From a virus: 64,000 bases of DNA. The translations under genes were made by a program, and so were the position numbers. The notes below the pieces were generated by a model. That model did no database searches and was not told the DNA's origin. It saw only the letters and a list, made by a program, of their open reading frames with translations. The stretch is taken from positions 28,495-92,494 of the IMG/VR virus record IMGVR_UViG_3300017917_003339, one strand, 5' to 3'. How positions within the stretch are numbered: position 1 is the stretch's first letter; each line of letters starts with the position of its first letter. Positions 2,106 through 60,514 of this stretch are shown here, piece by piece.

Positions 2106-2711
2106 TTATTTAATTTTTACGTTCTCAAAATCAACGTGTAAGTCTGTGGTAAATTCTTTACCGAATCTGTTTTTAACAACTTTTAAAGTTGTGTTAGGTC
2201 TTTTCTTCCAAAACAAAAGAAAATCATACCATTTTTTTCCGTGGTTAACTCTTTTAATAGCGACAAACATGTCAGCAAGATGTAATTGAGAACGATTGGT
2301 TTGAAAACTATCGTTCTTTGGTGCAAAACGTTTTAACTGAGTTGAGACGAATATTGGTGTATTGTAGTCTTGAGACAGACGAGCCAAATCTTCATAATTT
2401 ATAATCGGAAAATCAATTATCACCAAATCAAATCCCTTTTGGAAAAAAGGTTTTAAGTTAGTTTCAGGTAAGACCACAGAGTCAATAGTGATAGCACCAT
2501 TAACATCTACTTTTTTACCCAAATATTTCTCAATTCTTTTTAAGATTGGTTTAGATTTTGTTTCGGTAAGATATAATACTTTCTTCCCATCTAAATAAAC
2601 CTCAGCGGCCAATATAGAAAGCAATGTGGTTTTACCACTACCAGCGTATGAACCAAAAAACACTTTTGGTTTGTCTTCTAGGTTTAGCCCTAGTAATTTT
2701 AATAATTTCAT
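2106..2711 (-). CDS. P-loop ATPase, RecA/DnaB-like
   Basis: 201 aa. Walker A is FGSYAGSGKTTLL (residues 19-31) and Walker B is FDLVIIDFP (about 94-102). The C-terminal TLKVVKNRFGKEFTTDL resembles the late strand of DnaB/gp41-type helicase ATPases (KNRxG). It is much shorter than a replicative helicase and lacks an N-terminal domain, so a stand-alone ATPase or accessory loader is more likely than the main helicase. Start is ATGA-coupled to nadM upstream. Confidence 0.65.
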   Translation of the reverse strand: MKLLKLLGLNLEDKPKVFFGSYAGSGKTTLLSILAAEVYLDGKKVLYLTETKSKPILKRIEKYLGKKVDVNGAITIDSVVLPETNLKPFFQKGFDLVIIDFPIINYEDLARLSQDYNTPIFVSTQLKRFAPKNDSFQTNRSQLHLADMFVAIKRVNHGKKWYDFLLFWKKRPNTTLKVVKNRFGKEFTTDLHVDFENVKIK

Positions 2712-3694
2712 TTTAAAGCAATCAATTTGTCGGTTACTACTTTTTTCAAGAATGTTTTCATAAGTTCAATATGCTCTGGAACGATTTTATCCTCCAATTT
2801 CCATGTGTATTTGATTGGTGGTACGTGACCGTCGCCAAGACTTGGTTCTTGTTCATGTTCAAACAAATCAGTCAAATCAAAATATTTAACCTCAGCAATA
2901 TCGTCAGAAGCCTCAGGTTTTCCCATTTGGTCCCATTCATAGAACAAGAACAATGTTGTCATGATACCAGAATCTTCTCTCTCATAACGCCAATCCTTGA
3001 TTTGTTGACTGGCAACATACGTTGGTTTAAGGCCAGATAATTTGGTTTCTTCAAACAACTCTCTACGAGCAGCGGTTTCATAACAATCATCCGTTCTGTC
3101 GACAAACCCACCAACAAATCTAAATTTGTCTTCTGCTGGTTTTCTCGCTAAAAGGATTTGTCCGTTATAGTTGGCTACAACAATGTCAACAGTTGGATAA
3201 GTTACTGGTCTTTGTTTTGAAATACCGTAGATGACCCCAGCTCTGAAATCCTCAGAGTCTAACACTTCACTAGAAGCATTTGCTCTAATATCTGTAGCGT
3301 TGTGTGAAGACACTTGGTCTAGCATTTCTGTTTTGTGTTCCCCTGAATAGAAAGGAATAAATGAATCTCTGCTACCATACAAGATAGCTTGTTTTTCAGG
3401 GAATATCGTTGCAAGAGTGTTGTCAACATTTTCAGACCATTTTTCATCGCTTCTATGGTCTGGCAACGCCATAACAATAACCTCTGGGTATCTTTCTTGG
3501 ATTAATTTTCTACGAGTTGCAAAATCCAATGGATTTCTTTTTGTGTTTTGAATTCTAGGGATTCCCAAGAAAACAACAACGTTTGAGTGCATTTCACATA
3601 CTTTGTCTAAAACGCTAGTATGTCCTTCGTGTAAATATGGTGTTTGGAATCTTCCAATCATTACACCAACTTCTGGTTTTTTAATATCTTCCAT
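2708..3694 (-). CDS. nadM: Bifunctional NMN adenylyltransferase / Nudix hydrolase
   Basis: 328 aa, two domains. The N-terminal nucleotidyltransferase has GRFQTPYLHEGH (residues 14-25, the GxFxPxHxGH motif) and a late NATDIR segment (132-137) equivalent to ISxTxIR. The C-terminal Nudix domain has the box GGFVDRTDDCYETAARRELF then EET (about 195-217). By family knowledge the first domain makes NAD+ from NMN and ATP, while the second hydrolyses ADP-ribose or a related dinucleotide. With nadV at the left edge this forms a nicotinamide-to-NAD+ route. It is first in its operon, behind a TATATTTG promoter 18 nt upstream. Confidence 0.9.
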   Translation of the reverse strand: MEDIKKPEVGVMIGRFQTPYLHEGHTSVLDKVCEMHSNVVVFLGIPRIQNTKRNPLDFATRRKLIQERYPEVIVMALPDHRSDEKWSENVDNTLATIFPEKQAILYGSRDSFIPFYSGEHKTEMLDQVSSHNATDIRANASSEVLDSEDFRAGVIYGISKQRPVTYPTVDIVVANYNGQILLARKPAEDKFRFVGGFVDRTDDCYETAARRELFEETKLSGLKPTYVASQQIKDWRYEREDSGIMTTLFLFYEWDQMGKPEASDDIAEVKYFDLTDLFEHEQEPSLGDGHVPPIKYTWKLEDKIVPEHIELMKTFLKKVVTDKLIALK

Positions 3695-33252: not shown

Positions 33253-33264
33253 ATTTTTGTACAT

Positions 33265-33434: not shown

Positions 33435-33443
33435 TATAAATAT
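33435..33443 (-). promoter_or_regulatory. ATATTTATA motif, cassette B
   Basis: 21 nt before the ATG at 33413. Confidence 0.55.
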
Positions 33444-33489
33444 GTTCTTTTTTTAAAAAGTTTATTTTTTGTTTGTTTTTAAATTCTTT

Positions 33490-33499
33490 GCAAATATAC
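33490..33499 (-). promoter_or_regulatory. TAnnTTTG promoter, cassette B
   Basis: GTATATTTGC. Confidence 0.65.
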
Positions 33500-33548
33500 G
33501 AACTATTTTAATACTAGTCAAGTTTTTTTGCAACTTTTTTAAATTATT

Positions 33549-34136: not shown

Positions 34137-34139
34137 ACT

Positions 34140-34148
34140 AATAAATAT
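34140..34148 (-). promoter_or_regulatory. ATATTTATT motif
   Basis: 3 nt before the ATG at 34136. Confidence 0.55.
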
Positions 34149-34165
34149 GTCAAAGAATTGATTTG

Positions 34166-34248
34166 TACCGCTGACTGGACTCGAACCAGCACACCCTTTC
34201 GGGCACCAGATTCTTAGTCTGGCGTGTCTACCATTCCACCACAGCGGC
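34166..34248 (-). tRNA. tRNA-Leu(AAG)
   Basis: Class II; CCAGA-CTAAGAA-TCTGG. An A34 Leu anticodon is unusual in bacteria. Confidence 0.88.
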
Positions 34249-34255
34249 AGGTACA

Positions 34256-34338
34256 AGATAGTTAATTTTGTGGATTTGAACCACTTCGTTCGCATTTTAA
34301 GTGTGAATTTTTAACCAATTTTGTTTGCTGAAACTATC
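34256..34338 (-). tRNA. Degenerate tRNA-Leu-like gene (TAA)
   Basis: GATAGTT/AACTATC acceptor and GTGG-TTCAAAT-CCAC T-arm, separated by six unpaired nt; loop CTTAAAA with a mismatched stem. Confidence 0.45.
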
Positions 34339-34343
34339 TTTTG

Positions 34344-34418
34344 TAGGTCTGGAGGGATTCGAACCCCCGACTTTTTCCTTGTAAGAGAAACACTCTGAAC
34401 CAACTGAGTTACAGACCC
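34344..34418 (-). tRNA. tRNA-Val(TAC), copy 1
   Basis: GGGTCTG/CAGACCT; TTTCT-CTTACAA-GGAAA. Confidence 0.9.
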
Positions 34419-34427
34419 ATTATATTG

Positions 34428-34510
34428 TACCGCTGGCGAGACTCGAACTCGCACGCTTATTTCAGCACTGGTTTCTAAGACCAGCGGGTCTACCATTCCC
34501 CCACAGCGGC
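34428..34510 (-). tRNA. tRNA-Leu(TAG)
   Basis: Class II; CTGGT-CTTAGAA-ACCAG. Confidence 0.93.
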
Positions 34511-34520
34511 ATATATGATG

Positions 34521-34661
34521 TTAAGCTTCTTCTAGCTCAACATCTTCAATTTCTTTATCTTGTTCTAATTTTTTAGCACATGTAATGTGCATAAATTTTT
34601 TGTCTACTACTAAAGCAGCACCGTGGATAACACCACCACATTCACAACAATTAAACTTCAT
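34521..34661 (-). CDS. Small zinc-ribbon-like protein, 46 aa
   Basis: MKFNCCECGGVIHGAALVVD then MHITCAKKLEQD. CCxC...C spacing suggests one metal site. Sits between Leu tRNAs. Function unknown. Confidence 0.7.
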   Translation of the reverse strand: MKFNCCECGGVIHGAALVVDKKFMHITCAKKLEQDKEIEDVELEEA

Positions 34662-34694
34662 ACTTCCATAATTTTAATTAACACGTTATTTTTG

Positions 34695-34778
34695 TAGCCA
34701 GAGTGGGAATCGAACCCACACGTCCTTGCGGACACCAGATTTTGAGTCTGGCGCGTCTACCAATTCCGCCATCTGGCC
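34695..34778 (-). tRNA. tRNA-Leu(CAA)
   Basis: Class II; CCAGA-CTCAAAA-TCTGG. Confidence 0.93.
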
Positions 34779-34783
34779 AGTTG

Positions 34784-34869
34784 TAGCCGAGGAGGGACTC
34801 GAACCCTCACGCCCATTACTGAGCACGGGATTTTAAGTCCCGCGTGTCTACCAATTCCACCACTCGGCC
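34784..34869 (-). tRNA. tRNA-Leu(TAA)
   Basis: Class II; CGGGA-CTTAAAA-TCCCG. Confidence 0.94.
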
Positions 34870-34873
34870 ATTT

Positions 34874-34965
34874 ATGTGTTGTGAGAACTGTACCGTAGGC
34901 TATTCTCCGCATACCACATGGGTATTGTTCTATCGCCATAGCAGCCTCCATAAAGGACAACACAT
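34874..34965 (-). ncRNA. Stem-closed, branched spacer element
   Basis: 92 nt closed by ATGTGTTGT/ACAACACAT (9 bp). Inner hairpins CTAT/ATAG and ATACC/GGTAT. No T-loop. Confidence 0.5.
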
Positions 34966-34973
34966 ATTTTTGG

Positions 34974-35048
34974 TACACCCAACTGGATTCGAACCAGTGG
35001 CCTCTTGCGTGTAAAACAAGCGCTCTCAACCAACTGAGCTATGGGTGC
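34974..35048 (-). tRNA. tRNA-Val(TAC), copy 2
   Basis: GCACCCA/TGGGTGT; CTTGT-TTTACAC-GCAAG. Confidence 0.93.
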
Positions 35049-35060
35049 ATATGGTAGGGT

Positions 35061-35360
35061 TTAACCTACCTTGATAAAATCTTCATTATCGATGGCTCTT
35101 TCAATCCATCTGATTAATTCTGAACCCTTGATTTCTGCATCGAATGTGGTTGTACCCAAATCCTCAGCCAATACTAGTGTTGCAATTTTTTCTCTTTCAA
35201 AAGAATCCATTACAAATGATTTTTGTACAGTTTTGATTGGAAACTGATAGGTTCCATCCAACACATCAACTTTATAATATAGGTTCCCACCTACATAGTG
35301 ACTAAATTTAGCCAGATTCTTTGACTTATACAAGTCTTTTTTAATTTCATTCTTTTCCAT
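35061..35360 (-). CDS. Hypothetical protein, 99 aa
   Basis: Start taken at MEKNEIKKDL; an ATG 18 nt upstream is possible but lies 2 nt from tRNA-Cys. Mixed alpha/beta sequence (LYYKVDVLDGTYQFPIKTVQ). Between tRNA-Cys and tRNA-Val. Function unknown. Confidence 0.68.
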   Translation of the reverse strand: MEKNEIKKDLYKSKNLAKFSHYVGGNLYYKVDVLDGTYQFPIKTVQKSFVMDSFEREKIATLVLAEDLGTTTFDAEIKGSELIRWIERAIDNEDFIKVG

Positions 35361-35380
35361 TGTTTCACTCTTTATCATTG

Positions 35381-35451
35381 AGGCGCCGACTGGATTCGAA
35401 CCAGTGTACGGGGTTTTGCAGACCCCTGCCTAGCCACTCGGCCACGGCGCC
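35381..35451 (-). tRNA. tRNA-Cys(GCA)
   Basis: GGCGCCG/CGGCGCC; GGGGT-CTGCAAA-ACCCC. Confidence 0.94.
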
Positions 35452-37024: not shown

Positions 37025-38254
37025 TTAAAAATTAAATGGCCAAAAATTGAATTTGGACTTTTTAGGTTTGTAAAACTCTTTTCTGATTTTGGTAAGAAGT
37101 TTATTTACCAACTCTTTGTCTACGTTATTAGGTAGATTTGAGTTTTCGAATACTTCATCCATATTTTCAATGGCTTTGTCAGCGATGTCAATGAGCGAGT
37201 CTAAATCAACTTCACCACGTCTGATTGCTAGAAGTTCTTGAGCATCTGGTCGTCTTACGATAATACCCTTACCTTCACCAATTTCAGTAGCCATTCTAAT
37301 AAGACGCATACAGTGCATCATATTCTTACCGTCAATTCTTTGACCATGTTCTTGAGTTTCAACGTAACGAGCTTCGTTACGGTTCTCAAGCCATTCTTGG
37401 TATTCTTTGTAATCCTTACAGTGTTCTGAATAACCGTCTTTGTTATAAACGATTGTACAGATTGATTTCTCACCCTTTGGAATACTAGAAAGACGTAGTT
37501 GGTTAGAGATACCGTAGTTAACCTTACCATCTTCATCTTCATGACCAGTGTTAACAAGTCCTTTATACCCAAGACCCATTGGCTTGCCAGCATCTTTGAG
37601 AATTTGTTTCATTTTCTCTCTGGTTTCTTCATCATTAGCATTTGTATGAATCATTGCTGCTGTTCTATCATAAAACAAAGCATAAACATCTCTAGCGTTT
37701 GGTACATTTACAGCACCGATGAATTTTTCGTTGAAACCACGACCTTTGTTCCATTTTCTCCATGGGATTGATTTTTCACCTTCAAGAACATAACAGAAGT
37801 CTAACAAGTCTTTTCTTGTTACCTTGTCTTTCTCCCAGTTTTGTTTCTTGTTAAGACCCTTGGCTTTCTTGATTTGCTGTCTTGCATAACCACCAAATGA
37901 ATCCTTACAGATTTTGGTAATGAAGTCTTCTTTGTGCGCAAGAATAAGGTCAAAAAGCGGGTGCTTATGAACAATACAATCCTCTGGGCTGTTAAGAAGT
38001 TCAAGAACTGTTGGGTTGTTAGAACCCATTAGTTCAAGGAAACGCCTAATCTCCCAACCAGTGTAATCTTTATTTACGTTAATTTGTTCTACATACCCAG
38101 TACCTAGGATGTAATCCTCAGGCAATATGTAAACAAATTTCTTGTCGATGTCACTTGCAGGTGTTTGCGTACCGTATGCTTGAGAACCGATAATGGTTTC
38201 AAACAAGATAAGGCCGTTTTCCACAAGGAACTCATGTGTTATTTGTTTACTCAT
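37025..38254 (-). CDS. Predicted nucleotidyltransferase (Pol beta superfamily)
   Basis: 409 aa from MSKQITHEFL. ETIIGSQAYGTQTPASDIDK is the GS...D-x-D motif of the Pol-beta superfamily (COG3541 type), followed by a large helical domain. Frequent in large phages; substrate unknown, perhaps tRNA or another RNA. TATCTTTG promoter 17 nt upstream. Confidence 0.85.
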   Translation of the reverse strand: MSKQITHEFLVENGLILFETIIGSQAYGTQTPASDIDKKFVYILPEDYILGTGYVEQINVNKDYTGWEIRRFLELMGSNNPTVLELLNSPEDCIVHKHPLFDLILAHKEDFITKICKDSFGGYARQQIKKAKGLNKKQNWEKDKVTRKDLLDFCYVLEGEKSIPWRKWNKGRGFNEKFIGAVNVPNARDVYALFYDRTAAMIHTNANDEETREKMKQILKDAGKPMGLGYKGLVNTGHEDEDGKVNYGISNQLRLSSIPKGEKSICTIVYNKDGYSEHCKDYKEYQEWLENRNEARYVETQEHGQRIDGKNMMHCMRLIRMATEIGEGKGIIVRRPDAQELLAIRRGEVDLDSLIDIADKAIENMDEVFENSNLPNNVDKELVNKLLTKIRKEFYKPKKSKFNFWPFNF

Positions 38255-38271
38255 AATTCTTTTAATTTTTT

Positions 38272-38281
38272 GCAAAGATAC
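38272..38281 (-). promoter_or_regulatory. TAnnTTTG promoter (TATCTTTG)
   Basis: 17 nt before the ATG at 38254. Confidence 0.7.
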
Positions 38282-38668: not shown

Positions 38669-38697
38669 AAAAGGGCTATTTTATGTAGCCCTTTTTT
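38669..38697. terminator. Bidirectional terminator
   Basis: AAAAGGGCTA-TTTTATG-TAGCCCTTTTTT between the convergent holin-like and 2H genes. Confidence 0.85.
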
Positions 38698-39200
38698 ATT
38701 AACTCATGCAAGTATTCTGAGTGTTCTATATTTTTTTCGTTGGCATACCCAATACTCATGTGCATTCCAAAAAAGGGTCTCCCTAATCCTAACTCAGTTC
38801 TTATGGATTGTAACAATTCTCTTTCTTCGTGAGGAATATTAAACCACCATGTTCTACCATCAGTCCTTGGGTCCAAATCAATCACAAGTGGAATTTTTTT
38901 CCCATGCCATTTTTGTTTGGTAGTTTCCCACGCATTTAAAACCTCTTCCTCGGACTTTTCTCCGTTCTGGGTTAAATCCTTCATACTGTCGTTAATAAAC
39001 GAAATATGAGCCCCTCTGAGTGGTTTATTGAGCGGTAAGTTGTATCTTCTTTTTATAAACCATGCGTAATATTCGCATATCTCACCATCCACCATAACCA
39101 TGGCTACTTTTTTCCATGATGCTTGATTTAAGTGTTTCTTTGTCTTGTCCTCAGGCTCAAACTCAATCTTGCCTGTAAGGTGTAATATTTTGGTTTCCAT
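38676..39200 (-). CDS. 2H phosphoesterase-like protein
   Basis: 174 aa. Two H-x-S motifs, AHISFI (about 63-68) and MHMSIG (about 147-152), are the pair that defines 2H phosphoesterases (RNA 2',3'-cyclic phosphodiesterase/ligase fold). Acts on RNA or nucleotide cyclic phosphates by family. Its 3' end lies in the terminator. Confidence 0.72.
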   Translation of the reverse strand: METKILHLTGKIEFEPEDKTKKHLNQASWKKVAMVMVDGEICEYYAWFIKRRYNLPLNKPLRGAHISFINDSMKDLTQNGEKSEEEVLNAWETTKQKWHGKKIPLVIDLDPRTDGRTWWFNIPHEERELLQSIRTELGLGRPFFGMHMSIGYANEKNIEHSEYLHELIKKGYIK

Positions 39201-39576
39201 TGATTGCTAATAAATCGTTAATAATTTGTCTATCAATCTCGTTTGCTATTTCTTGGGCTAATAAATTTTCTAGTTCAGCTGTTACATCAATTCCATGGAA
39301 CTCTTGTAAGTCTTGTGCCATTTCAACAGACCAATAAACTGGTCTCTTGTAGGCTGAACCAAAAGAATCTTTATCTAATCCATTAGCAAACGCCCATCTT
39401 CTAAATACTTTTTCACAAGCTAAAATGTCAAAATCAAAAACAATATGACACTCAAGGACTATGTCCTGACCATATTCTAATTGAGTTGTGTTGACATGAT
39501 AAAATTTATTATCACGAACGTAATAATGTCTGTCTAAGTATTTGTTTAGGGTTTTTTTAATGTCAATGGGTTTCAT
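39163..39576 (-). CDS. Small protein with T4 gp23-like segment, 137 aa
   Basis: Start at MKPIDIKKTL (the preceding TTG is less likely). Residues ~83-125 (VEMAQDLQEFHGIDVTAELE, then LLAQEIANEIDRQII) strongly resemble the helix of T4-type major capsid proteins that reads AQDLxxxHGLDxxAEL..IL..EI..EINR. The N-terminal ~80 residues are different. It is far too short for a capsid protein. Confidence 0.7.
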   Translation of the reverse strand: MKPIDIKKTLNKYLDRHYYVRDNKFYHVNTTQLEYGQDIVLECHIVFDFDILACEKVFRRWAFANGLDKDSFGSAYKRPVYWSVEMAQDLQEFHGIDVTAELENLLAQEIANEIDRQIINDLLAINGNQNITPYRQD

Positions 39577-39612
39577 ACACAATTATACGAAACCCATAGA
39601 TATTAGTAAATG

Positions 39613-40338
39613 TTAAGCTAACCTAAGTGGTTTTAAATAATCTCTTAAAAAGACATTTTTTTCACCACCAACTCTTTCAACCCATGCAGCGTAGTTTTTG
39701 TTGTTGGCTTCTTCCCACTTTGCATACTCTTTGTCAGATGGTGTTTTGTGTGATGGCCAAGTGTATGGTGTTCCAACAAAGTCTGGGTATAACTCTCGGT
39801 TGAATACTCTTTCATCCACCAAGAATACAACAGCTGTTAATTGGTCACCCAAGTCTGGTTCGTTAAACTCTGCTGTTAACACACCGTTGTCTTTTAGAGT
39901 CTGAGCGTGTTTGTTTAGAGTACCAAGTCTGTCAATCGTATTGTTGGTTGTACCACCGTTAAGGATAATAAATGTTTTATCATTCTTAGCCCATTTGTTG
40001 TAAATATCAACATGCGGCTTCATATCACGAGTGTTTTGTTGGTACTCAACCACAGCATGACCAAACTGAATACCTTGTTGAATCGGACTCAAATTGTAAG
40101 GTACGAGACCGTACATTCTGTATTCCAAATACATTTCAGTTTTTCTTGGCATCGAGTTCGCTTTTACCTTGCATTGTGACAACGCTTCAAGAAATTCATC
40201 CTTAGGCATTGATGGAAATGTAAAGTAATGTTTCTCTTTTGAACCGTCCAATTCTAGTGGCCATTCATTTAGGTCCAAGACTCTTATTTTAAGTTCTAAA
40301 CACCATTGGTATGGTGATTTAAATTCTAATTCTTCCAT
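39613..40338 (-). CDS. Peptidyl-tRNA hydrolase 2-like protein
   Basis: 241 aa from MEELEFKSPY, TAATG-coupled to the PARP gene. The central part (SPIQQGIQFGHAVVEYQQN ... KTFIILNGGTTN ... LTAVVFLVDERVF) follows the PTH2 pattern, where a G-x-x-(A/F)xHA helix precedes a KK(I/V) strand and a late gt-TvlA strand. PTH2 frees tRNA stuck on peptides. Match is by pattern only. Confidence 0.6.
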   Translation of the reverse strand: MEELEFKSPYQWCLELKIRVLDLNEWPLELDGSKEKHYFTFPSMPKDEFLEALSQCKVKANSMPRKTEMYLEYRMYGLVPYNLSPIQQGIQFGHAVVEYQQNTRDMKPHVDIYNKWAKNDKTFIILNGGTTNNTIDRLGTLNKHAQTLKDNGVLTAEFNEPDLGDQLTAVVFLVDERVFNRELYPDFVGTPYTWPSHKTPSDKEYAKWEEANNKNYAAWVERVGGEKNVFLRDYLKPLRLA

Positions 40339-41627
40339 TAGTTTTCCATTTGTATTAAGTGAGAAATTGTACATTGCGCTGGGTTGTAAACGATGAACTC
40401 ATCATTTCTTAAGTCAGCACCACCATGAGCATACACACTATCAAAATTGTCTTTTTGAATGTTTGAATAACTCAAAGTGTAGCATGAAGAATCATGCTTG
40501 TAGATGTGTTTCTCGTTTCCTAAATGCACATCAAACAAGGCTAGGAAACCTACGTTAGAGTTACCTCTGGTCCAATAAGAACCAGAGAGTGAACTGTAGC
40601 CTAACGATTTTTGGCTTTTGTTGGCGAAATAAATACCGTCACCAAACATCGAACCTGTGTAAACAGCACCTGAAGGTCTAATCATAAGACCAGTCTGGAT
40701 GATGTTAAACCAGTTCTCATTTCTTGAACCGTGCCAGTAAAGTCTTTTCTTTTTAACTCTGGCCGTGTTAAAGTGTTTGTCGAAGCGTTCTTGGGTTGCA
40801 ATGTTAACAACCTTGAAAATCTTCTTGGCTTTGCTGGCGTTATCACCCAACAATTTGGTAATAAGACTTAGCATTTCAGCGTCTTTCTCAACCTCAACCT
40901 TAAGACCCATTTGAGTAAGAATGTCAATGTCTGACATTTCTTTACCAGTAGTCTCCACAGATTGTTTTTGTTGTTTGATAAGCTTAACTTGACCAGCCAT
41001 GGTGTCCAACGCACTTTGTTCTTCACCCAAGAGTCTTTGGGCTTTTTCCAATTGGTCGTCATTGTCAAGACCTTGCACCAAGTGGTTCTTTACGTTGTCC
41101 ATTTTACGTGGAATGATTGTAAATAAACGTAACAACTCGTTGTTCACCTCTTTGGTATCACCACCAACCTTAAGCATAGCGGTAATCTTAGATAACACTT
41201 CTTGTGCGGCATCAACTTGTTGTTCAGAAACAGCGTCTTGAGTAACCTTATAGTTCTTCTGAATGGATTTATTCGCGTATGCCATAAGGTCTTGAACCAA
41301 TTTCTTAACCATGGCATCTTTGATGGCATCTACCGCATTGTTTTTTGGGTCACCGTTTGTGTTATCAACAACTGGTTCGGCCAATAACTCAGTTACATCA
41401 GTGTAACCCTTGGTAGATGAGGTTTTTTCTCTTAAGATTTTATCCCATTCATGTTTGTTTTTGTAAACAACAGACATGTTTTTACCAACACGACCGTATT
41501 CACATTTAATTCTACCATCAGCAAGCTCTTCCATGATATAGACTTTGTTGCTGTTATCTGTTTTGCCATTGTCGACCGATACGTGAATCAACTTGGCATA
41601 TCTTAAACCGTTTTCTTTAACAATCAT
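40338..41627 (-). CDS. WGR-domain poly(ADP-ribose) polymerase
   Basis: 429 aa. WGR domain (about 10-80), helical regulatory-like region (about 95-240) and PARP catalytic domain (about 250-429). The H-Y-E triad is complete: LYWHGSRNENW (H299), GDGIYFANKSQKS (Y333) and LRNDEFIVYNPAQ (E410). The glutamate supports true PAR-chain activity rather than mono-ADP-ribosylation. It uses NAD+, whose synthesis genes are also in the window. TATCTTTG promoter 19 nt upstream. Confidence 0.93.
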   Translation of the reverse strand: MIVKENGLRYAKLIHVSVDNGKTDNSNKVYIMEELADGRIKCEYGRVGKNMSVVYKNKHEWDKILREKTSSTKGYTDVTELLAEPVVDNTNGDPKNNAVDAIKDAMVKKLVQDLMAYANKSIQKNYKVTQDAVSEQQVDAAQEVLSKITAMLKVGGDTKEVNNELLRLFTIIPRKMDNVKNHLVQGLDNDDQLEKAQRLLGEEQSALDTMAGQVKLIKQQKQSVETTGKEMSDIDILTQMGLKVEVEKDAEMLSLITKLLGDNASKAKKIFKVVNIATQERFDKHFNTARVKKKRLYWHGSRNENWFNIIQTGLMIRPSGAVYTGSMFGDGIYFANKSQKSLGYSSLSGSYWTRGNSNVGFLALFDVHLGNEKHIYKHDSSCYTLSYSNIQKDNFDSVYAHGGADLRNDEFIVYNPAQCTISHLIQMEN

Positions 41628-41679: not shown

Positions 41680-41886
41680 TTATTTCCATTTTTTTGTAAC
41701 GTCTTCCAAGATACTTTGATTCTCATTGACAAAACGTAAGAATAATGGTTGTAGTTCTGGTGGCAATGGATAACCATTCATATAAACCACATCCATAACG
41801 ACTTCGATTTCTTGACCAGCTTGAAGTGGCATATTTCTAGCCACCTCAACATTTTTGGTCAATTTAAAAACTTTCTCAGTAATCAT
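41680..41886 (-). CDS. Hypothetical protein, 68 aa
   Basis: Not recognised. Short beta-rich start (EKVFKLTKNVEVARNMPLQA). TAATG-type overlap with the next gene upstream. Confidence 0.7.
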   Translation of the reverse strand: MITEKVFKLTKNVEVARNMPLQAGQEIEVVMDVVYMNGYPLPPELQPLFLRFVNENQSILEDVTKKWK

Positions 41887-43766: not shown

Positions 43767-44807
43767 TTACACCAACTTAAAGAACATATCTCTAACCTTA
43801 GAAGAGATATATTTGTTCACATCTTTTGGTTCAATTTTGTTGTCAACCATGGTATCCATTTCCTCTTTGATAACGTCATTTACCACCCATCTGATTACAT
43901 CACCCAACTTGTTGTTTTGGATTGGTTCTTCGTTAGGGAAAACGTTTTCAAGCGCTTGGTTGAAACGGCTTTCAGTTACAGCGTATTCAACAAACTTTTG
44001 GATTGATTCCAATTTTTCGGTATCAACAGCAGCAAGTGTTTTTACTTTGCTTGAACTGTGTTTCTCACCCTTTACTTTGAAACGGTGTACGTTTCCGTTG
44101 AGAGTTGTTGACCATACGATACCTTCACCAATACCAGAGAAACCAAATGCCTTAGCAACTGGACATTCTTCTTCAACCGCAAGGGTAAGTTCTGACAATT
44201 TGTTTTGAACCAACTGAGGCATGTTGAAGTCGATATCGATTGTCCATGTTGGGTAATCGTCAATGTTGAAAATTCTGTTTTCTGGGCTTTTCAAGTATGA
44301 GTAATCAACCCAATAAGCTGGTTTAACTTTAGCATCTTCTTCTGTTGTGGTGTGAGGTGTAACTTTAACACCAAAGATGAAGAATGATTTTTCAATGTTA
44401 GTGATACCAACACCCTTTTGAATGTTACCACCAGCCCATTCACCGTAAATAGTTACAGTATTTTCAAGCATGTCGATTTCGTTTTTGGTGAAAATGCTAG
44501 CAATCAACTCAGTGAATAGTTCTTTGTTTGATTCAACAAAAAATGCGAAACCAGCGTTGTCTTTTTTAGGTGTGATAATGTTTTCACGAGACTGAGCCCA
44601 AATACCATCTGATAAATTACCAGATACAGCAGCGTTTGTACCGTGAAGTTTAACGGTACCCTTAAACGTAAGCGTTGGCTTTGGTCTGGTGGTATCATAG
44701 ATTGCATCACCGTTTTCGTCAAGACCAGCAAAATTGTATTGTCTAAGAACAGTAGCAACTACACTTCTGAATTGTTCAATAGACGGAAATTTAATCATTT
44801 TTTTCAT
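43767..44807 (-). CDS. RNA ligase, Rnl2 type
   Basis: 346 aa. Nucleotidyltransferase motif I TVKLHGTNAAV (Lys nucleophile about residue 53), motif III/IIIa IYGEWAGGNIQKGV, motif IV GEGIVW and motif V HRFKVKGEKHS. A C-terminal helical domain matches T4 Rnl2. Seals nicked or annealed RNA ends. No TAnnTTTG box is visible just upstream; it may be read from a farther promoter. Confidence 0.88.
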   Translation of the reverse strand: MKKMIKFPSIEQFRSVVATVLRQYNFAGLDENGDAIYDTTRPKPTLTFKGTVKLHGTNAAVSGNLSDGIWAQSRENIITPKKDNAGFAFFVESNKELFTELIASIFTKNEIDMLENTVTIYGEWAGGNIQKGVGITNIEKSFFIFGVKVTPHTTTEEDAKVKPAYWVDYSYLKSPENRIFNIDDYPTWTIDIDFNMPQLVQNKLSELTLAVEEECPVAKAFGFSGIGEGIVWSTTLNGNVHRFKVKGEKHSSSKVKTLAAVDTEKLESIQKFVEYAVTESRFNQALENVFPNEEPIQNNKLGDVIRWVVNDVIKEEMDTMVDNKIEPKDVNKYISSKVRDMFFKLV

Positions 44808-45482: not shown

Positions 45483-46883
45483 TTATTCTACCAAAAGAGT
45501 CTTTGCCATGTTCTCAATTTCTTTGATAGACTCAAGTGTATCACAAGTGTCTTTATCATCTCTGAACCCAGCAAATGAAGGGTATAACAATGAATAGTTA
45601 CCGTCAACATCATGTGACAAACCGTTACATTTACATTGAATTACAGACCCCAACAAATTCTCTTGGTTGTCAGTAACATACTGCATCAATTCTTCAGTAA
45701 GACCTTGTGGTCTTGTCTTAACAAGTCCATCAGCAGATTCACAGTTAAGACTTGAGATTACATTCTCGTTCTTGGTACCCTTGGTCCCGTAGTTAAACCC
45801 AACGATACGTAAATCGACATCCATTTCAAGTTTCATTTTGATTTGCCATGTTGGTTTACCGTCTTTCCACTCACCGTCCCATGCTTTAAGGATTGTACCT
45901 TCTTCGCCAGCTGACAACACTTCTTGGAAATGTGTCATGGCTTGTGCATAGTTGTGAACAATCAAACCTTCGATGATGTTTACGTGAGTTGAACCGACCT
46001 TCTCAATCGCTCTTTCCAAATAAGCTAAACGCTCAGCATATTTAAGTTTTGATGATTTGTTGAAGTATTCATCAACTGTGATACGGTCCCAAACAGTGTA
46101 ACGGATTTTATCCAACGCCTCTTCAACTGAACCATGTTTGTCAGTAAACGCTTTTAATTTCTTCTCGTTTTCTTTTTCAGTTCTTGAATCTTTTTTACCC
46201 AAGATATCAATAAGAGAAGCGATGATACCGTTTGATTCATAACGAGGTGTATCAATCATTGTTAACTCACCATTTAACACACAATCTTCGAAGTATGTTA
46301 ATTCTTCCAAGAACTTAGCGCCAGTAAGAATTGTTGGTTCACCTTGACGAGATTCCAATTCCACTTCACCGCTACGGATAACAGCGTTACAGTAACGACC
46401 ATCCATTTTGATTTGAGAAATACCCTTACCGCCTTTTTCAAAGATTTTACGAGCTTTCTTCTCATCGAAAGAGACAGCGCCCATATAAGGTGTTTCTTCA
46501 ATAAGACCCTTGAATACTTTGTTCATGAATGTGGTACCCATACCAATCTTACAATCTTTCTCGATGATACGTTCGATAATATAAGCATCATCATGAGAAA
46601 CACCACTTAACAAAACTACTAACCAGTTTATCGCTTGGGTTCCAGTGTATTCTCTGTTCGATATTTTTTCAAGTCCAGCTAAAGCCCATTCAAGGGTTTC
46701 TGAACCTTCATTATCTGGTGTGTATTCTGGAACACGTTTCAAATAGAATTTAACTCGTTTAGAGTTTGCCATGTAAAGGACTTTCTTTAATAACTCATTG
46801 TCTGAGTATTTTCTAAGGATATCAACCTTAGCGTTGTTACCGCTCTCAGCGGCAATCTCGTCAAATATTTGTTTTATCGTCAT
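45483..46883 (-). CDS. ATP-dependent DNA ligase
   Basis: 466 aa, T4 gp30-like. Motif I SQIKMDGRYCN (Lys about residue 158), motif III-like VLNGELTM, motif IV EGTILKAWDG and motif V WQIKMKLEMDVDLRI. Joins DNA nicks in replication and repair. Usual length for the family. Confidence 0.93.
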   Translation of the reverse strand: MTIKQIFDEIAAESGNNAKVDILRKYSDNELLKKVLYMANSKRVKFYLKRVPEYTPDNEGSETLEWALAGLEKISNREYTGTQAINWLVVLLSGVSHDDAYIIERIIEKDCKIGMGTTFMNKVFKGLIEETPYMGAVSFDEKKARKIFEKGGKGISQIKMDGRYCNAVIRSGEVELESRQGEPTILTGAKFLEELTYFEDCVLNGELTMIDTPRYESNGIIASLIDILGKKDSRTEKENEKKLKAFTDKHGSVEEALDKIRYTVWDRITVDEYFNKSSKLKYAERLAYLERAIEKVGSTHVNIIEGLIVHNYAQAMTHFQEVLSAGEEGTILKAWDGEWKDGKPTWQIKMKLEMDVDLRIVGFNYGTKGTKNENVISSLNCESADGLVKTRPQGLTEELMQYVTDNQENLLGSVIQCKCNGLSHDVDGNYSLLYPSFAGFRDDKDTCDTLESIKEIENMAKTLLVE

Positions 46884-47494: not shown

Positions 47495-47998
47495 TTAACC
47501 CTCCAAACTTTTACCCAATAATTTTTCCAAGTGGTCCCACATTGGTCTAGCCCCTATTGGTGTGTTTAAATACAAAGCACCTTTAAACTCAGCGTATTCC
47601 TTGGCATACATGTCAATTTTACCACCATGTTCAATGTTGGCAATTCTATCAGCCAATTTAAGAATAATCGCATCTGGATTGCTGGCAGTCTTAGGAAGAG
47701 TTTTCTCTTTTTTCTCTTTTCTGTTTCTACCAAGCTCGTCAGTTACACAGAAAACCATTTCAGCAACTTCAATACCGAAGTGTTTTTTGATGTCGTTATA
47801 GCTAATACCATCGTCCTCTATGCTATCATGTAGATAACCAGAAACAATGTATTTTCCAGAATACCCAAAACGCTTCAACACATCAACAACATCGTCTAAG
47901 TGTTTTTCGTATGGGAATATTTCGTCATAGGATTGGTTGCTGTGTGCTTTAACAGCTACCATTCTAGCTTCTTTGTATGTTTTATCTGTGTAAATCAT
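47495..47998 (-). CDS. HD-domain hydrolase, MESH1/SpoT-like
   Basis: 167 aa. VKAHSNQSYDEIFPYEKHLD (first H), GYLHDSIEDDG (HD-x-xED), then VTDELGRNRKEKK and LKLADRIANIEHGG (late D) follow the ppGpp-hydrolase HD pattern. The synthetase domain of SpoT is absent, as in MESH1. It may cleave (p)ppGpp or a related nucleotide. Confidence 0.8.
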   Translation of the reverse strand: MIYTDKTYKEARMVAVKAHSNQSYDEIFPYEKHLDDVVDVLKRFGYSGKYIVSGYLHDSIEDDGISYNDIKKHFGIEVAEMVFCVTDELGRNRKEKKEKTLPKTASNPDAIILKLADRIANIEHGGKIDMYAKEYAEFKGALYLNTPIGARPMWDHLEKLLGKSLEG

Positions 47999-48537: not shown

Positions 48538-48572
48538 GTTATGCTCTAACCCCTTAGGATTAGAGCATTTTG
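48538..48572 (-). terminator. Terminator-like hairpin after Rnl1
   Basis: GCTCTAATCC/GGGTTAGAGC stem at the end of the ligase gene; the T run is weak. Confidence 0.5.
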
Positions 48573-49684
48573 TATAACAATTTGTCATCGTAGTTAACAA
48601 TGAAGTTTTCTACTGAATCAACTTTACCATCAACAAGACCGAAATACAACCCAGTGAATTGTTTCAAGTCATATTTACCACAAACTTCAAAGACAGCCGC
48701 AGCATATCTTTTCTTTTCTTCTTTGGTAATGTTTTTTGGTTTACGAGCGCTTAACTCAACCCAAACTTCATTCAACTTATCAACCAACTTATCGTAATTT
48801 TCTTTAAGTCTGAATAATTCATCTTTTCTTTCTGGGAAAGTTGAAGCGAATTCTTCAATCTCGTTAGATTTAACGATAGTTATGATGTTGTGTTCAGCTG
48901 TTTTACCTTTCAAGTGGTGAACCGCAACGTAAGCTGGGTTTTTTATCTTGATACGGTTGAAGTTAGCGTCAACTACAACGTAGCCTTCGTCGTGCCATAT
49001 CATGTTTTCAAAGGTTCTTAACAAAACACCAACGTTGTTAGCGTTTAAGTCAAATCTTTTAACAAGTGGTACTCTCAACGATTCTGCAATCATAGTTAAG
49101 TCTTTCCATGAAACTTCTTGCAAAGTAACAAGGTTTCTAACAGTCAACAAAGTTGCTGATGATTCACCGTGTGGTTTTACAACGATGTTGTATGGAGTTG
49201 TTAACTCGAATACATACACGTGGTCTTTATCAAGCATGCATGGGTTTAACGCATATTGTTTTGTAACAGTGTCCCAAAACAACGAGTTGAATGTAGTTCC
49301 CATTTTGTTGTTAACTTCACCTTCACCCTCAGCTGTACCAGTGGTACCAGCAAACCATTCGTTTTTATGCCAATCCCAATATAGTTGGATAAGTGTACCG
49401 TCAAGTTTTTCTAATACGTGCGCTGTGTTCCAATCTACTTTATGTGCGTTTGATTCCTCAGCGTTGAAGAATTTGGTGAACGCCAATGACATAACATCCC
49501 ATGAACCTTTTTCAAGGATAAGTCCTCTACATTCTTGAACTTCTATGTTTGACATAAGAGTTGGTGCAGACAATTGGTCGTATTTCAATAACACTTTGTA
49601 GTCGTATTCACGAACCTTTAATTGAAATTTGTTAACGGCTGCATTTAAACCGTGTTGTCTTATGTAATTTTGTATCTGTAACAT
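48560..49684 (-). CDS. rnlA: RNA ligase 1 (T4 RnlA-like)
   Basis: 374 aa, same length as T4 Rnl1. ECRGLILE precedes the nucleophile motif I VLEKLDGTLIQLYW (Lys about residue 93). Motif III is YVFELTTPYN, motif IV HDEGYVVVD and motif V RIKIKNPAYVA. By family it re-seals tRNAs cut in the anticodon loop. A TATATTTG box lies 17 nt upstream. Confidence 0.93.
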   Translation of the reverse strand: MLQIQNYIRQHGLNAAVNKFQLKVREYDYKVLLKYDQLSAPTLMSNIEVQECRGLILEKGSWDVMSLAFTKFFNAEESNAHKVDWNTAHVLEKLDGTLIQLYWDWHKNEWFAGTTGTAEGEGEVNNKMGTTFNSLFWDTVTKQYALNPCMLDKDHVYVFELTTPYNIVVKPHGESSATLLTVRNLVTLQEVSWKDLTMIAESLRVPLVKRFDLNANNVGVLLRTFENMIWHDEGYVVVDANFNRIKIKNPAYVAVHHLKGKTAEHNIITIVKSNEIEEFASTFPERKDELFRLKENYDKLVDKLNEVWVELSARKPKNITKEEKKRYAAAVFEVCGKYDLKQFTGLYFGLVDGKVDSVENFIVNYDDKLLYKML

Positions 49685-50177: not shown

Positions 50178-50810
50178 CTATTTGCTGTAATAATAACGTG
50201 GTACACTAACCTTTACACCATATCTAGCACCTATGGCTTCTATACCATCTGTAAATTTTGTGTCAATATCACATGTTTCTTCAGAAACACCTCTTAAATA
50301 AAGCGTGTATTGAGACTTTCCTAGCCAATTTTTTTCTTTTCGTAAATCTTTAACACTTACAGTATTACCATCAAATTTGTGGATTTCCATGAAAGCGTTT
50401 AAGTCGTCTTTTAGTGTTTCTACATCAATATCCATTTGAAATGGTACACCCATTGACAGCAAGGATTCACTTACCAATTCATTGTATCTACCAAAACTTC
50501 CGTTGATTAGAACTTGCATAGGAACCCATTTAACAACATGTGGTTCGTTATGGTTTATTTCACCAGAATACTTGGCCAAATATGTATAACCCATATTACC
50601 GCTCTTGTGGATAGCAAAAACCAATTGTAAATCTGAAACATCTAAACCAGTTTCTTCTTTACATTCTCTTATGGCTGTAACCATTGGGTCGTTGTTATCC
50701 TCTGGGTCCATCTTACCACCTGGTAAACCGAAATCAGTGTGGTTGTCTTTTCTAGACACACCAAGGATGAGTCCTAGTTCGTTAATTAAAACTACTTGTG
50801 CTGTTATCAT
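50178..50810 (-). CDS. Nudix hydrolase with C-terminal extension
   Basis: 210 aa from MITAQVVLIN. Nudix box GLPGGKMDPEDNNDPMVTAI then RECKEETGL (about 28-57). The last ~70 residues (TVSVKDLRKEKNWLGKSQYT onward) are an added domain. Substrate unknown. TATATTTG promoter 13 nt upstream. Confidence 0.88.
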   Translation of the reverse strand: MITAQVVLINELGLILGVSRKDNHTDFGLPGGKMDPEDNNDPMVTAIRECKEETGLDVSDLQLVFAIHKSGNMGYTYLAKYSGEINHNEPHVVKWVPMQVLINGSFGRYNELVSESLLSMGVPFQMDIDVETLKDDLNAFMEIHKFDGNTVSVKDLRKEKNWLGKSQYTLYLRGVSEETCDIDTKFTDGIEAIGARYGVKVSVPRYYYSK

Positions 50811-50823
50811 AATATCTTTTTTT

Positions 50824-50833
50824 GCAAATATAC
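50824..50833 (-). promoter_or_regulatory. TAnnTTTG promoter for the Nudix gene
   Basis: GTATATTTGC, 13 nt before the ATG at 50810. Confidence 0.7.
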
Positions 50834-50861
50834 GATATATTATCAATATATGCAAATAAAA

Positions 50862-50886
50862 AAAGGGGTCTTAAGACCCCTTTTTA
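50862..50886. terminator. Terminator (palindromic)
   Basis: AAAAAGGGGTC-TTAA-GACCCCTTTTT. Confidence 0.88.
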
Positions 50887-51809
50887 ACATCCGTTACAAC
50901 ACCCATTATATTAAATGGTTTTATTTTTTTCCAGTTGGTTATGTCATTGGACATAACTGGTTTTCCACCATCTGGATTTATGGCAATTGTAACGTGTGGT
51001 ATTTGTTTGGTTGATGGATATCCATCAACCTTTACAGCCATTGCCATATCTGACAACCCTAACTCAGTTACAGTTAAAGTTACTTGCTTACCCAAGTCTT
51101 CTTGGTTTGGTACTGGTTTACCCAACGCAATAGTCATGTGGTGAGCAATAACTTTCCAATCATCAGGAATTAAATCATCAACTCTCGACAACAAAGCTGC
51201 TCTGGACCCTTCATCCAATACAACAGCTGAGTATAAGATATCAGACTGTTTGTACATGTCTTTGGATTCCAACACGCTTTTAAGTGTCATAGCACCTTGT
51301 CCTTTGTGTGATTCAATCATTGATTTAATTTTTTCAAGAGGAACACCGTGAGTGTTTCTTCCAGCCAATTGCTCAGCTGTAAGACCACCAGTACCAACAT
51401 CAACGAATTTTATGTTGTGGTCCGCTAAACCCAATTCCAATGCAGCCTTAACAGCGGCCTTTGGTTCGTTTTGTTTGATGTTTGTGTTATCAAGGATAAC
51501 TGGTGAAACACCTTCTTTTAACGAAGCTACAACGTTTTTCAAGTTGGTTGAGTGCGCACGTGACAATGGTGTGAAATCCTTAGATTCAACCATCAATTCG
51601 AAAAATTTGTTGTAGTCACCTTGTGATTCTATAACAGTATCTGTTGAATGGATAACTCCTTCACCTACTAGTTCTTTGGCTTTTGTTGATTTGCCAGAAC
51701 CAGGTATACCACGCATCACGATAAGCACTTGGTCTGGTCTTGAAACCGAAACCCCTAATGAGTTTTTTAACATACCTTCTCTTAATATTGTTCTTATTTC
51801 TTTTTTCAT
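50871..51809 (-). CDS. CTS-tagged P-loop kinase fused to a 2H phosphoesterase-like domain
   Basis: 312 aa. Tag MKKEIRTILREG. Kinase part: VLIVMRGIPGSGKSTKAKEL (Walker A), then VILDNTNI, as in T4 polynucleotide-kinase-type proteins. C-terminal part: two H-x-T motifs, HHMTIALGKP (about 221-230) and PHVTIAIN (about 271-278), typical of 2H cyclic phosphodiesterases. The order kinase then CPDase recalls the end-healing half of fungal tRNA ligase Trl1. With Rnl1/Rnl2 this would heal and seal cut tRNA. The promoter box ends about 4 nt before the ATG; Met13 is an alternative start without the tag. Confidence 0.85.
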   Translation of the reverse strand: MKKEIRTILREGMLKNSLGVSVSRPDQVLIVMRGIPGSGKSTKAKELVGEGVIHSTDTVIESQGDYNKFFELMVESKDFTPLSRAHSTNLKNVVASLKEGVSPVILDNTNIKQNEPKAAVKAALELGLADHNIKFVDVGTGGLTAEQLAGRNTHGVPLEKIKSMIESHKGQGAMTLKSVLESKDMYKQSDILYSAVVLDEGSRAALLSRVDDLIPDDWKVIAHHMTIALGKPVPNQEDLGKQVTLTVTELGLSDMAMAVKVDGYPSTKQIPHVTIAINPDGGKPVMSNDITNWKKIKPFNIMGVVTDVKKGS

Positions 51810-58709: not shown

Positions 58710-59288
58710 TTAGTTGAAATCAAGTTTATTTTTCATAAATTGTTTAAAACGTTCAAAGTCTTTTTTTGAACCTAATATATGAGTTTTATTTGCAAATCTT
58801 ATTGCAAAATCTGCCGAATGTAAAGACAACACAAATTCTAACGATTTTGGTTTATTGATATCAAATGTTTGATATATTAAATCAGCGCCTTCTGGAAATA
58901 TACCACGTTGAAAATCATCAAAAGACACAGCTTTTGGGTTCGATACGTCAATGACAACCGCTTTAGTGTTTCTACCCCAATGATTTACATTTTCTTCATC
59001 TCTATTATTCGTTAAAAATATACCTTCTCTAGCAGTAAAGTCTTTATCAACAAATTTTCTTCTTGGTGCTCTGTCATTGAATTCATCAAAATCGTTATTT
59101 GTACCATGATAAAGAATATTTTTAACTTTACTATTAGGAAAAATAGTTTTTAAATATTCGGAATATTCTTTTGGTGTCCCAATTGAATTAAATTCAGGGT
59201 GTTGTTCATATACAAAATACACACCAGAATCAATGTCATTATTAATGTCATTGACTTTGTCTATCATTTTACGAATATTTTCACTCAT
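58710..59288 (-). CDS. ADP-ribosyltransferase-like protein
   Basis: 192 aa. VKNILYHGTNNDFDEFNDRA (H-G-T), EGIFLTNNRDEENVNHWG and AVVIDVSNPKAVSFDDFQRG match the ART-like domains of phage and polyvalent proteins (H...Y/F...E/D pattern). Catalytic residues beyond the HGT are not certain. Would use NAD+. Immediately downstream of the CCA enzyme gene. Confidence 0.68.
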   Translation of the reverse strand: MSENIRKMIDKVNDINNDIDSGVYFVYEQHPEFNSIGTPKEYSEYLKTIFPNSKVKNILYHGTNNDFDEFNDRAPRRKFVDKDFTAREGIFLTNNRDEENVNHWGRNTKAVVIDVSNPKAVSFDDFQRGIFPEGADLIYQTFDINKPKSLEFVLSLHSADFAIRFANKTHILGSKKDFERFKQFMKNKLDFN

Positions 59289-59296: not shown

Positions 59297-60514
59297 CTAT
59301 TTTAATAATTTTTCAAAGTTAGCTGTTTCCATTTTTTGAATGGCTTTACCCAACTCAGGACCTGGTTTCAAGTCGAACTTCTCCATTGCCTCAGGGCCGC
59401 TAACACTAAGTCTGTATTGTTCAAAAGCGTTTAGCAATTTTTCTGGTATGTTTTCTTTCTCACCAAATTCTATAATTTGTTTATCAGAAACACCCGCAGT
59501 TTGTTGCATCTTTTTAAGCAAGTATGCTGTATCAACACTCAACTTTAACAATGAAATCAAAAACACAATAGCTTTGATTTCGTTATCTGAGTATTTCAAT
59601 TCATTTAGCTTTTTTCTTAATAAATCAATATCATTATCCTTTAACAAACTAGCCAATTCAACAATATAACTATCAGCTTTACCAGATTTATTAGTGTACG
59701 CTTTTTTGTTCAATAACATGTTAGGTAATATCCATCTGAATAAATCATATTTATCTAACATTTCCATGTATTTTTTAAGTGATTTAGCTGATATGATACC
59801 TTTAATGAATTCATCTCTTATACGCTCTTGGGAAATATTTTTTGAAGTTTTTGAACCATCTGGATTTATATAAACTGGAAAACCACCTAATCTAGAATCT
59901 TTTTTTAGGGCAGCATCTGTTTCTGGTTCTAAATCTTTCCCAAATAAACCAGCAAATCGTACTGCTCTAAGTATTCTAAGTCTATCTTCACCAAATCTAT
60001 CTTCTGGGGCACCAACTGTTCTAACTGTACCGTTTTTAAGGTCATCAACACCACCTACAAGGTCAACAATTTCTTTTGTATCTATGTCATAGAACAATGC
60101 GTTGATTGTTAAGTCACGTCTTTTAACGTCACCTTCTATGTTGGTAAATGAAACTGCGTCTGGTCTTCTGCCACTAGATAAATCTTCTCTAAATGTTGCG
60201 ATTTCGTATTCCCCTTGGTCTGTAAACACGTTGATAACACCGAATGCTTTACCCGTTGGTAGAGTTCTGAACCCCGCATCTTGCATTATTTCTTCAACTT
60301 TGTCAGGAACAGCGTCTGTTGCTAAGTCAAAGTCTTTAGGTGTTTTACCCAAAAGAGCATCACGCACAGCGCCACCAACCACATATAATTTGTATCCGTT
60401 TTTGGTAAACACCTTTTGGATTTCAATTATATCTGACGGTATCTGGAAGTCGAATTTAATTCTTTCTTCCATGACAAGCCCTTCTCTAAGTATTTGTTTT
60501 ATTTGTGTTTTCAT
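59297..60514 (-). CDS. cca: CTS-tagged CCA-adding tRNA nucleotidyltransferase
   Basis: 405 aa. Tag MKTQIKQILREG, then the class II nucleotidyltransferase core: VVGGAVRDALLGKTPKDFDL, ATFRED, RRDLTINALFYD and EDRLRILRAVRFAG. Repairs or adds the tRNA 3' CCA. The TATCTTTG box ends 4 nt before the ATG, so mRNA may be leaderless; Met15 would give an untagged form. Confidence 0.92.
   Translation of the reverse strand: MKTQIKQILREGLVMEERIKFDFQIPSDIIEIQKVFTKNGYKLYVVGGAVRDALLGKTPKDFDLATDAVPDKVEEIMQDAGFRTLPTGKAFGVINVFTDQGEYEIATFREDLSSGRRPDAVSFTNIEGDVKRRDLTINALFYDIDTKEIVDLVGGVDDLKNGTVRTVGAPEDRFGEDRLRILRAVRFAGLFGKDLEPETDAALKKDSRLGGFPVYINPDGSKTSKNISQERIRDEFIKGIISAKSLKKYMEMLDKYDLFRWILPNMLLNKKAYTNKSGKADSYIVELASLLKDNDIDLLRKKLNELKYSDNEIKAIVFLISLLKLSVDTAYLLKKMQQTAGVSDKQIIEFGEKENIPEKLLNAFEQYRLSVSGPEAMEKFDLKPGPELGKAIQKMETANFEKLLK

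What the first reader, a model, noticed from the sequence alone, without database searches (positions are those of the whole stretch)
40338..41627. Phage WGR-PARP with intact H-Y-E triad
A complete eukaryote-like WGR/regulatory/catalytic layout with H299, Y333 and E410 in a phage genome. Together with an ART-like protein (58710-59288), two Nudix domains and NAD+ synthesis, it points to a phage that both makes and spends NAD+. Possible roles: modifying host RNA polymerase or ribosomes (as T4 Alt/Mod do by mono-ADP-ribosylation) or responding to DNA ends, which WGR domains bind.
Basis: partly seen in the sequence, partly recalled or inferred. Interest (0 to 1): 0.77.

Follow-up and report, generated by a model that had tools for sequence, protein, structure and literature searches.

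The report
Phage break-sensing PARP in repair island
This large phage carries a complete PARP enzyme, of the kind that in animals senses broken DNA and tags molecules with ADP-ribose; phage PARPs were already known, but here the break-sensing residues are intact and the gene sits in a conserved cluster of DNA and RNA repair genes, which makes its role testable.

Summary
Window 40338-41627 (minus strand) encodes a 429-aa PARP with H299, Y333 and E410, laid out as WGR, helical domain and ART domain. A confident model (pLDDT 89.9) best matches human PARP1 and PARP2 bound to broken DNA. In the 81-sequence family, N27, K28, R46 and K68 are invariant and align with PARP2 N129, K130, R153 and K183, residues that read 5'-phosphate breaks and relay activation.
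Phage PARPs have been in print since 2014 (Cellulophaga phi4:1), so the protein is a new member of a known kind. I found no report of its setting. In about 30 related phages the gene lies in one fixed block: ATP-dependent DNA ligase, Rnl2-type RNA ligase, PARP, a conserved 253-aa protein, a 2H-like phosphoesterase, RlaP. More distant phages place PARP near RlaP more often than chance.
The same phage makes NAD+ (NadV, NadM-Nudix) and encodes Sir2, NADAR and macrodomain proteins; no KptA or ADP-ribosyl glycohydrolase was found.
Best reading: an ADP-ribosyltransferase switched on by broken ends, acting in phage nucleic-acid repair rather than as a T4 Alt/Mod-like modifier. Activity, activator and target are untested.

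The parts
40338..41627 (-). WGR-PARP, 429 aa (P0001)
   Evidence: PF00644 E=1.3e-26; PARP2 full-length profile match; AF2 pLDDT 89.9
41388..41627 (-). WGR domain, residues 1-80; Y44-G45-R46; invariant N27, K28, R46, K68
   Evidence: Alignment to PARP2 WGR; conservation
40908..41339 (-). Helical (regulatory) domain, about residues 97-240
   Evidence: Profile alignment to PARP1/PARP2 HD; helices in model
40341..40907 (-). ART catalytic domain, residues 241-429, with H299 (40731-40733), Y333 (40629-40631), E410 (40398-40400)
39613..40374 (-). Conserved 253-aa protein overlapping the PARP 3' end by 37 bp; PHROG_3668 'hydrolase' (peptidyl-tRNA-hydrolase-2-like by eye only)
   Evidence: synteny; overlap in relatives; no Pfam or PDB match
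38676..39200 (-). 2H-phosphoesterase-like protein (invariant H65 and H147; HIS and HMS motifs)
   Evidence: weak 2H-SAK match in 3 of 11 relatives
37025..38275 (-). RlaP (RNA-repair nucleotidyltransferase)
   Evidence: PF10127 E=2.4e-24
43767..44807 (-). RNA ligase, Rnl2-type
   Evidence: PF09414 E=8.6e-10; PHROG_548; TIGR02307 E=1.1e-8, below its cut-off
45483..46883 (-). ATP-dependent DNA ligase (53% identical to the one beside PARP in Cellulophaga phi4:1)
48560..49684 (-). T4 Rnl1-type RNA ligase
   Evidence: PF09511 E=3.5e-14
50871..51809 (-). P-loop kinase plus tRNA-ligase phosphodiesterase-like domain
   Evidence: PF13671 E=5.6e-10, PF08302 E=2.5e-4
50178..50855 (-). Nudix protein
   Evidence: PF00293 E=1.5e-11
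47495..47998 (-). HD-domain protein in the same block
   Evidence: PF13328 E=3.7e-10
41680..41886 (-). Conserved 68-aa protein directly upstream of PARP
   Evidence: Conserved position
2708..3694 (-). NadM-like adenylyltransferase-Nudix (NAD+ synthesis)
   Evidence: PF00293 E=1.4e-14, PF01467 E=0.0013
58710..59288 (-). Weak ART-PolyVal-like protein beside the CCA enzyme
   Evidence: PF18760 E=1.1e-4, below cut-off
59297..60514 (-). tRNA nucleotidyltransferase (CCA enzyme)
   Evidence: PF01743 E=7.6e-37

Best explanation
A phage ADP-ribosyltransferase of the WGR-HD-ART type, switched on by broken 5'-phosphorylated nucleic-acid ends and working inside the phage's nucleic-acid repair island. Shown here: the domain layout, the intact catalytic triad, invariance of the break-sensing and relay residues, and a fixed gene block with DNA ligase, RNA ligase, 2H-like and RlaP genes. 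Inferred: the WGR domain binds a nick or cleaved end of phage DNA, or of a cleaved tRNA; the helical domain then opens; the enzyme uses NAD+ to ADP-ribosylate itself, nearby proteins or the end, marking or holding the end for the co-encoded ligases. Products could be cleared by the phage's macrodomain and NADAR proteins, with NAD+ refilled by NadV and NadM. Whether chains or single units are made is open; the H-Y-E triad alone does not decide it (PARP3 has it and adds single units; own knowledge).
For: Catalytic domain PF00644 E=1.3e-26. Profile match through WGR, HD and ART to human PARP2, about 1e-51. Model pLDDT 89.9, best fold matches PARP1 and PARP2 on DNA breaks. PARP2 N129, K130, R153 and K183 align with invariant N27, K28, R46 and K68; N127 with N25 (N in 75/81); W151 with Y44 (aromatic in 81/81). 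Enrichment of these positions among invariant WGR columns p=5e-4. Their roles in 5'-phosphate recognition and signal relay are in PMC8190142. DNA ligase, RNA ligase, 253-aa protein and 2H-like genes flank PARP in about 29-32 of 66 non-redundant phage loci. Cellulophaga phi4:1, with a PARP about 32% identical, has a CCA enzyme and the same DNA ligase family beside it. In 13 more distant genomes RlaP lies within 10 kb in 7, against 1.4 expected (p=6.5e-5; about 0.006-0.03 after collapsing lineages). NAD+ salvage and ADP-ribose enzymes on the same contig.
Against: No biochemical evidence. PARP2 Tyr201, a 5'-phosphate contact, has no aligned counterpart. Many distant phage PARPs (for example L075-L086) do not sit beside recognised repair genes. 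Jumbo phages cluster nucleic-acid genes anyway, so proximity may be generic; in a small control NadV was within 10 kb in 2 of 6 genomes (0.4 expected) and KptA in 1 of 4. DNA-ligase proximity is only marginal (p=0.05) and Rnl1 not significant. Fixed synteny within one clade is one inherited arrangement, not about 30 independent events.
Confidence: 0.5

Rival explanations
1. Host-takeover enzyme: it ADP-ribosylates host proteins such as RNA polymerase or ribosomal proteins, as T4 Alt and Mod do, and the repair neighbourhood is incidental.
For: ARTs of many phages are predicted to act on host proteins, and PMC7824862 suggests this for phage PARPs. An ART-PolyVal-like protein lies elsewhere in the window.
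Against: Different ART clade from Alt/Mod (H-Y-E, not R-S-E). A WGR and helical gate with conserved break-sensing residues would be unneeded. Not in a head-gene context and not fused to a capsid domain.
Confidence: 0.2
2. Anti-competitor or toxin-like module: a PARP kept in check by an ADP-ribose eraser, like DarT/DarG.
For: In four phage contigs and three Firmicutes genomes a TARG1-like macrodomain gene lies directly upstream of the PARP (A6 vs human TARG1 E=1.4e-32).
Against: No eraser gene is adjacent in this window; the macrodomain and NADAR genes sit about 43 kb away beside NadV and Sir2. No PADLOC match to the PARP.
Confidence: 0.1
3. KptA-like RNA end cleaner: it removes the 2'-phosphate left by the 2H-like enzyme, in place of the missing KptA.
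For: 2H-like, RNA ligase and RlaP genes are adjacent, and no KptA was found in G000-G004. PMC9503650 proposes sirtuins for this job in other phages.
Against: Triad and domains are those of PARP, not Tpt1/KptA. G005, which has PARP with the RNA ligase, 253-aa and 2H-like genes, also has KptA. A Sir2 is already present.
Confidence: 0.06
4. Recently captured host gene with no role in the phage (cargo).
For: Bacteroidota and Firmicutes carry relatives at 36-47% identity.
Against: Phage-only clade of 19 rows with full support; intact active site and synteny kept down to about 57-60% protein identity.
Confidence: 0.05

Closest known systems
Cellulophaga phage phi4:1 PARP (KT962245; reported in Perina et al. 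2014, PMC4245714)
   Same: WGR-type PARP; beside a CCA enzyme and the same DNA ligase family
   Different: About 31% identical; 383 aa; no RNA ligase, 2H-like or RlaP homologue in the 13 kb stretch examined
Xanthomonas phage XacN1 PARP (BBA65562.1; named in PMC7824862) and Stenotrophomonas phage RAS14
   Same: Phage WGR-PARP with the triad; RlaP within 9 kb
   Different: About 25-27% identical, separate branch of the tree
Human PARP2 / PARP1 (PDB 7aeo, 6x0l, 4dqy)
   Same: WGR-HD-ART layout, H-Y-E, WGR residues N129, K130, R153, K183
   Different: About 20% identity; Tyr for Trp in WGR; no aligned Tyr201; no zinc fingers
Bacteroidota chromosomal PARPs (Saprospiraceae, Cytophagales)
   Same: Full-length relatives, 36-47% identical
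   Different: Usually followed by a small winged-helix-like protein instead of repair genes
T4 Alt/ModA/ModB
   Same: Phage ADP-ribosyltransferases
   Different: R-S-E clade, no WGR or helical domain

Membership tests
Break-dependent PARP (WGR-HD-ART, PARP1-3 type) | ART domain with H-Y-E triad | tested here: met
   PF00644 E=1.3e-26; H299, Y333, E410
Break-dependent PARP (WGR-HD-ART, PARP1-3 type) | N-terminal WGR domain | tested here: met
   Profile alignment to PARP2 WGR, model; not called by Pfam at E<=0.01
Break-dependent PARP (WGR-HD-ART, PARP1-3 type) | Helical regulatory domain between WGR and ART | tested here: met
Break-dependent PARP (WGR-HD-ART, PARP1-3 type) | Break-contact and relay residues (PARP2 N127, N129, K130, W151, R153, K183, Y201) | tested here: met
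   Six of seven conserved or conservatively replaced; Y201 not alignable
Break-dependent PARP (WGR-HD-ART, PARP1-3 type) | NAD+ turnover stimulated by broken nucleic acid | not testable with these tools
   Needs enzyme assay
T4 Alt/Mod ADP-ribosyltransferases | R-S-E active site, no WGR or helical domain | tested here: not met
   H-Y-E with WGR and HD
KptA/Tpt1 RNA 2'-phosphotransferase | PF01885 domain | tested here: not met
   Only PF00644 matches P0001; PF01885 finds nothing in G000
DarT/DarG-like writer-eraser pair | Adjacent ADP-ribosyl hydrolase gene | tested here: not met
   Nearest macrodomain found is about 43 kb away

The most novel reading that the evidence does not exclude
The phage PARP senses 5'-phosphate ends of cleaved tRNAs or nicked DNA and ADP-ribosylates the end itself, protecting or pre-activating it for the co-encoded RNA and DNA ligases, which would be an NAD+-driven repair route not described for phages in what I could read. 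PARP3-made ADP-ribose ends are reported to be usable by ATP-dependent DNA ligases without ATP (PMC8053099).
Probability: 0.12. Interest if true: 0.82.

Novelty: new member of a known kind. Interest (0 to 1): 0.45.

Why it matters
What PARPs do in bacteria and phages is largely unknown. This clade ties a full WGR-HD-ART enzyme with intact break-sensing residues to ligases, an RNA-end polymerase and a 2H-like enzyme in one fixed gene block, and to NAD+ synthesis and ADP-ribose removal in the same genome. That turns a vague guess into a concrete test: does a broken end switch on a phage PARP, and does this help the phage survive DNA damage or tRNA-cleaving defences?

Tried and rejected
A first model from 12 close sequences was poor (pLDDT 64.5); 81 diverse sequences gave 89.9. 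The 253-aa neighbour looked like peptidyl-tRNA hydrolase 2 by eye, but no Pfam or PDB match supports it. The 174-aa neighbour as a 2H enzyme rests on two HxS motifs and weak Pfam hits. KptA substitution was tested by looking for mutual exclusion and not supported, since G005 has both. ADP-ribosyl glycohydrolase was not found in G000-G004. The microbial PARG search rang nowhere, not even in controls, so it is inconclusive. A defence role by PADLOC gave nothing for the PARP. Papers: no report of PARP in a phage repair neighbourhood in the open library; subscription papers are mostly not covered.

Full report
Observation. The ORF at 40338-41627 on the minus strand encodes 429 aa. Pfam finds the PARP catalytic domain at E=1.3e-26, well over its cut-off, and the three catalytic residues are H299, Y333 and E410 as stated. 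Chance is excluded. The window lies at 28495-92494 of a 92,494-base virus record, with 46 predicted tRNA genes in the window. The closest relatives are 88-89% identical PARPs on contigs up to 362 kb, so the source is very likely a jumbo phage.

Architecture. Pfam names only the catalytic part, so the WGR and regulatory domains were tested separately. A profile of 81 relatives matches human PARP2 across WGR, helical domain and ART at about 1e-51. An AlphaFold2 model from the same alignment has pLDDT 89.9 and pTM 0.85, and its best PDB matches are PARP1 and PARP2 on DNA breaks (TM about 0.6, as expected for an enzyme whose domains can move).

Break sensing. In PARP2 the 5'-phosphate end is held by Trp151, Lys130, Lys183 and Tyr201, while Arg153, Asn127 and Asn129 relay the signal to the regulatory domain (PMC8190142). 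Using the alignment these fall on Y44, K28, K68, (no counterpart for Tyr201), R46, N25 and N27. N27, K28, R46 and K68 are invariant in all 81 sequences, N25 is N in 75, and position 44 is always aromatic. Invariant WGR columns are enriched for these positions (p=5e-4). The mapping is by sequence alignment, not superposition. Tyr in place of Trp is the usual bacterial form (PMC5966428).

Setting. The PARP gene is flanked by an Rnl2-type RNA ligase and an ATP-dependent DNA ligase upstream, and by a 253-aa conserved protein, a small protein with a capsid slice, a 2H-like phosphoesterase and RlaP downstream. The 253-aa gene overlaps the PARP end by 37 bp here and in several relatives, which suggests coupled expression. 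The block is kept in about 30 of 66 non-redundant phage loci, but these are one clade and count as one inherited arrangement. Independent support: Cellulophaga phi4:1 has PARP between a CCA enzyme and the same DNA ligase family, with one small gene between PARP and the ligase. Among 13 more distant genomes RlaP lies within 10 kb of PARP in 7 (1.4 expected, p=6.5e-5), and p is about 0.006-0.03 when lineages are collapsed. DNA ligase is marginal and Rnl1 not significant. Generic clustering of nucleic-acid genes in jumbo phages is not excluded; controls were few.

NAD+ economy. The window has a NadM-like-Nudix protein and a second Nudix. Just outside it the contig encodes NadV, PRPP synthetase, Sir2, NADAR, a macrodomain protein and Thg1. 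The NadV-NADAR-macrodomain-Sir2 set recurs in G001, G002, G003, G007 and G008. KptA and ADP-ribosyl glycohydrolase were not found in G000-G004; these records may be incomplete, so absence is not proof.

Origin. In the tree (quick method) the window PARP lies in a phage-only clade of 19 with full support. Bacteroidota and Firmicutes PARPs fall among phage lineages, and the direction of transfer is not resolved.

What is known. Perina et al. 2014 (PMC4245714) reported PARPs in Cellulophaga phi4:1 and Aeromonas phage Aeh1, with the triad intact in three of their four viral PARPs. The jumbo-phage and NAD+-ADPr surveys of 2021 and 2022 (PMC7824862, PMC9503650) list phage PARPs, suggest host-protein modification, and discuss KptA and sirtuins, but in the passages read not PARPs, in RNA-repair neighbourhoods. 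The protein is therefore a new member of a known kind; the new points are the conserved break-sensing set and the repair setting.

Verdict. An end-activated ADP-ribosyltransferase in the phage's repair island is the best reading (0.5). Host takeover (0.2), a toxin-like module (0.1) and a KptA substitute (0.06) are weaker. All functional steps are inference.

Noticed in passing
window 39163-39582 (-): A 139-aa protein whose residues 84-127 match a 44-residue slice of the T4 Gp23 major capsid protein (PF07068 E=1.7e-14), about 54% identical to the true capsid proteins of sister phages (68% in two relatives' versions). The slice recurs at the same place in relatives, while the full capsid gene lies elsewhere; a second small ORF (contig 11432-11551) carries another capsid slice. 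Possibly a decoy for capsid-sensing defences.
   Followed up: partly
L099, L102, L103, L104 (phages); L141, L144, L150 (Firmicutes): TARG1-like macrodomain gene directly upstream of a WGR-PARP: a candidate writer-eraser module.
   Followed up: partly
27 bacterial (mostly Bacteroidota) loci and 7 phage loci, e.g. L130 6173-7207: A small winged-helix-like protein with a TTTLEVKNxLR motif, mostly adjacent to the PARP, sometimes with a long C-terminal extension; no Pfam match in the L130 copy.
   Followed up: partly
G000 contig 17654-28500 (just left of the window): NadV, NADAR, macrodomain, Sir2, PRPP synthetase and Thg1 genes in one stretch.
   Followed up: yes
window 12304-16702, 25235-35451, 53378-56415: 46 predicted tRNA genes in 64 kb, several in tandem duplicates or triplicates for the same anticodon.
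   Followed up: no
window 8124-9035 and 603-1712: Bestrophin-like channel (PF25539 E=4.3e-47) and glutamate synthase-like protein (PF01645 E=2.4e-84), unusual phage cargo.
   Followed up: no
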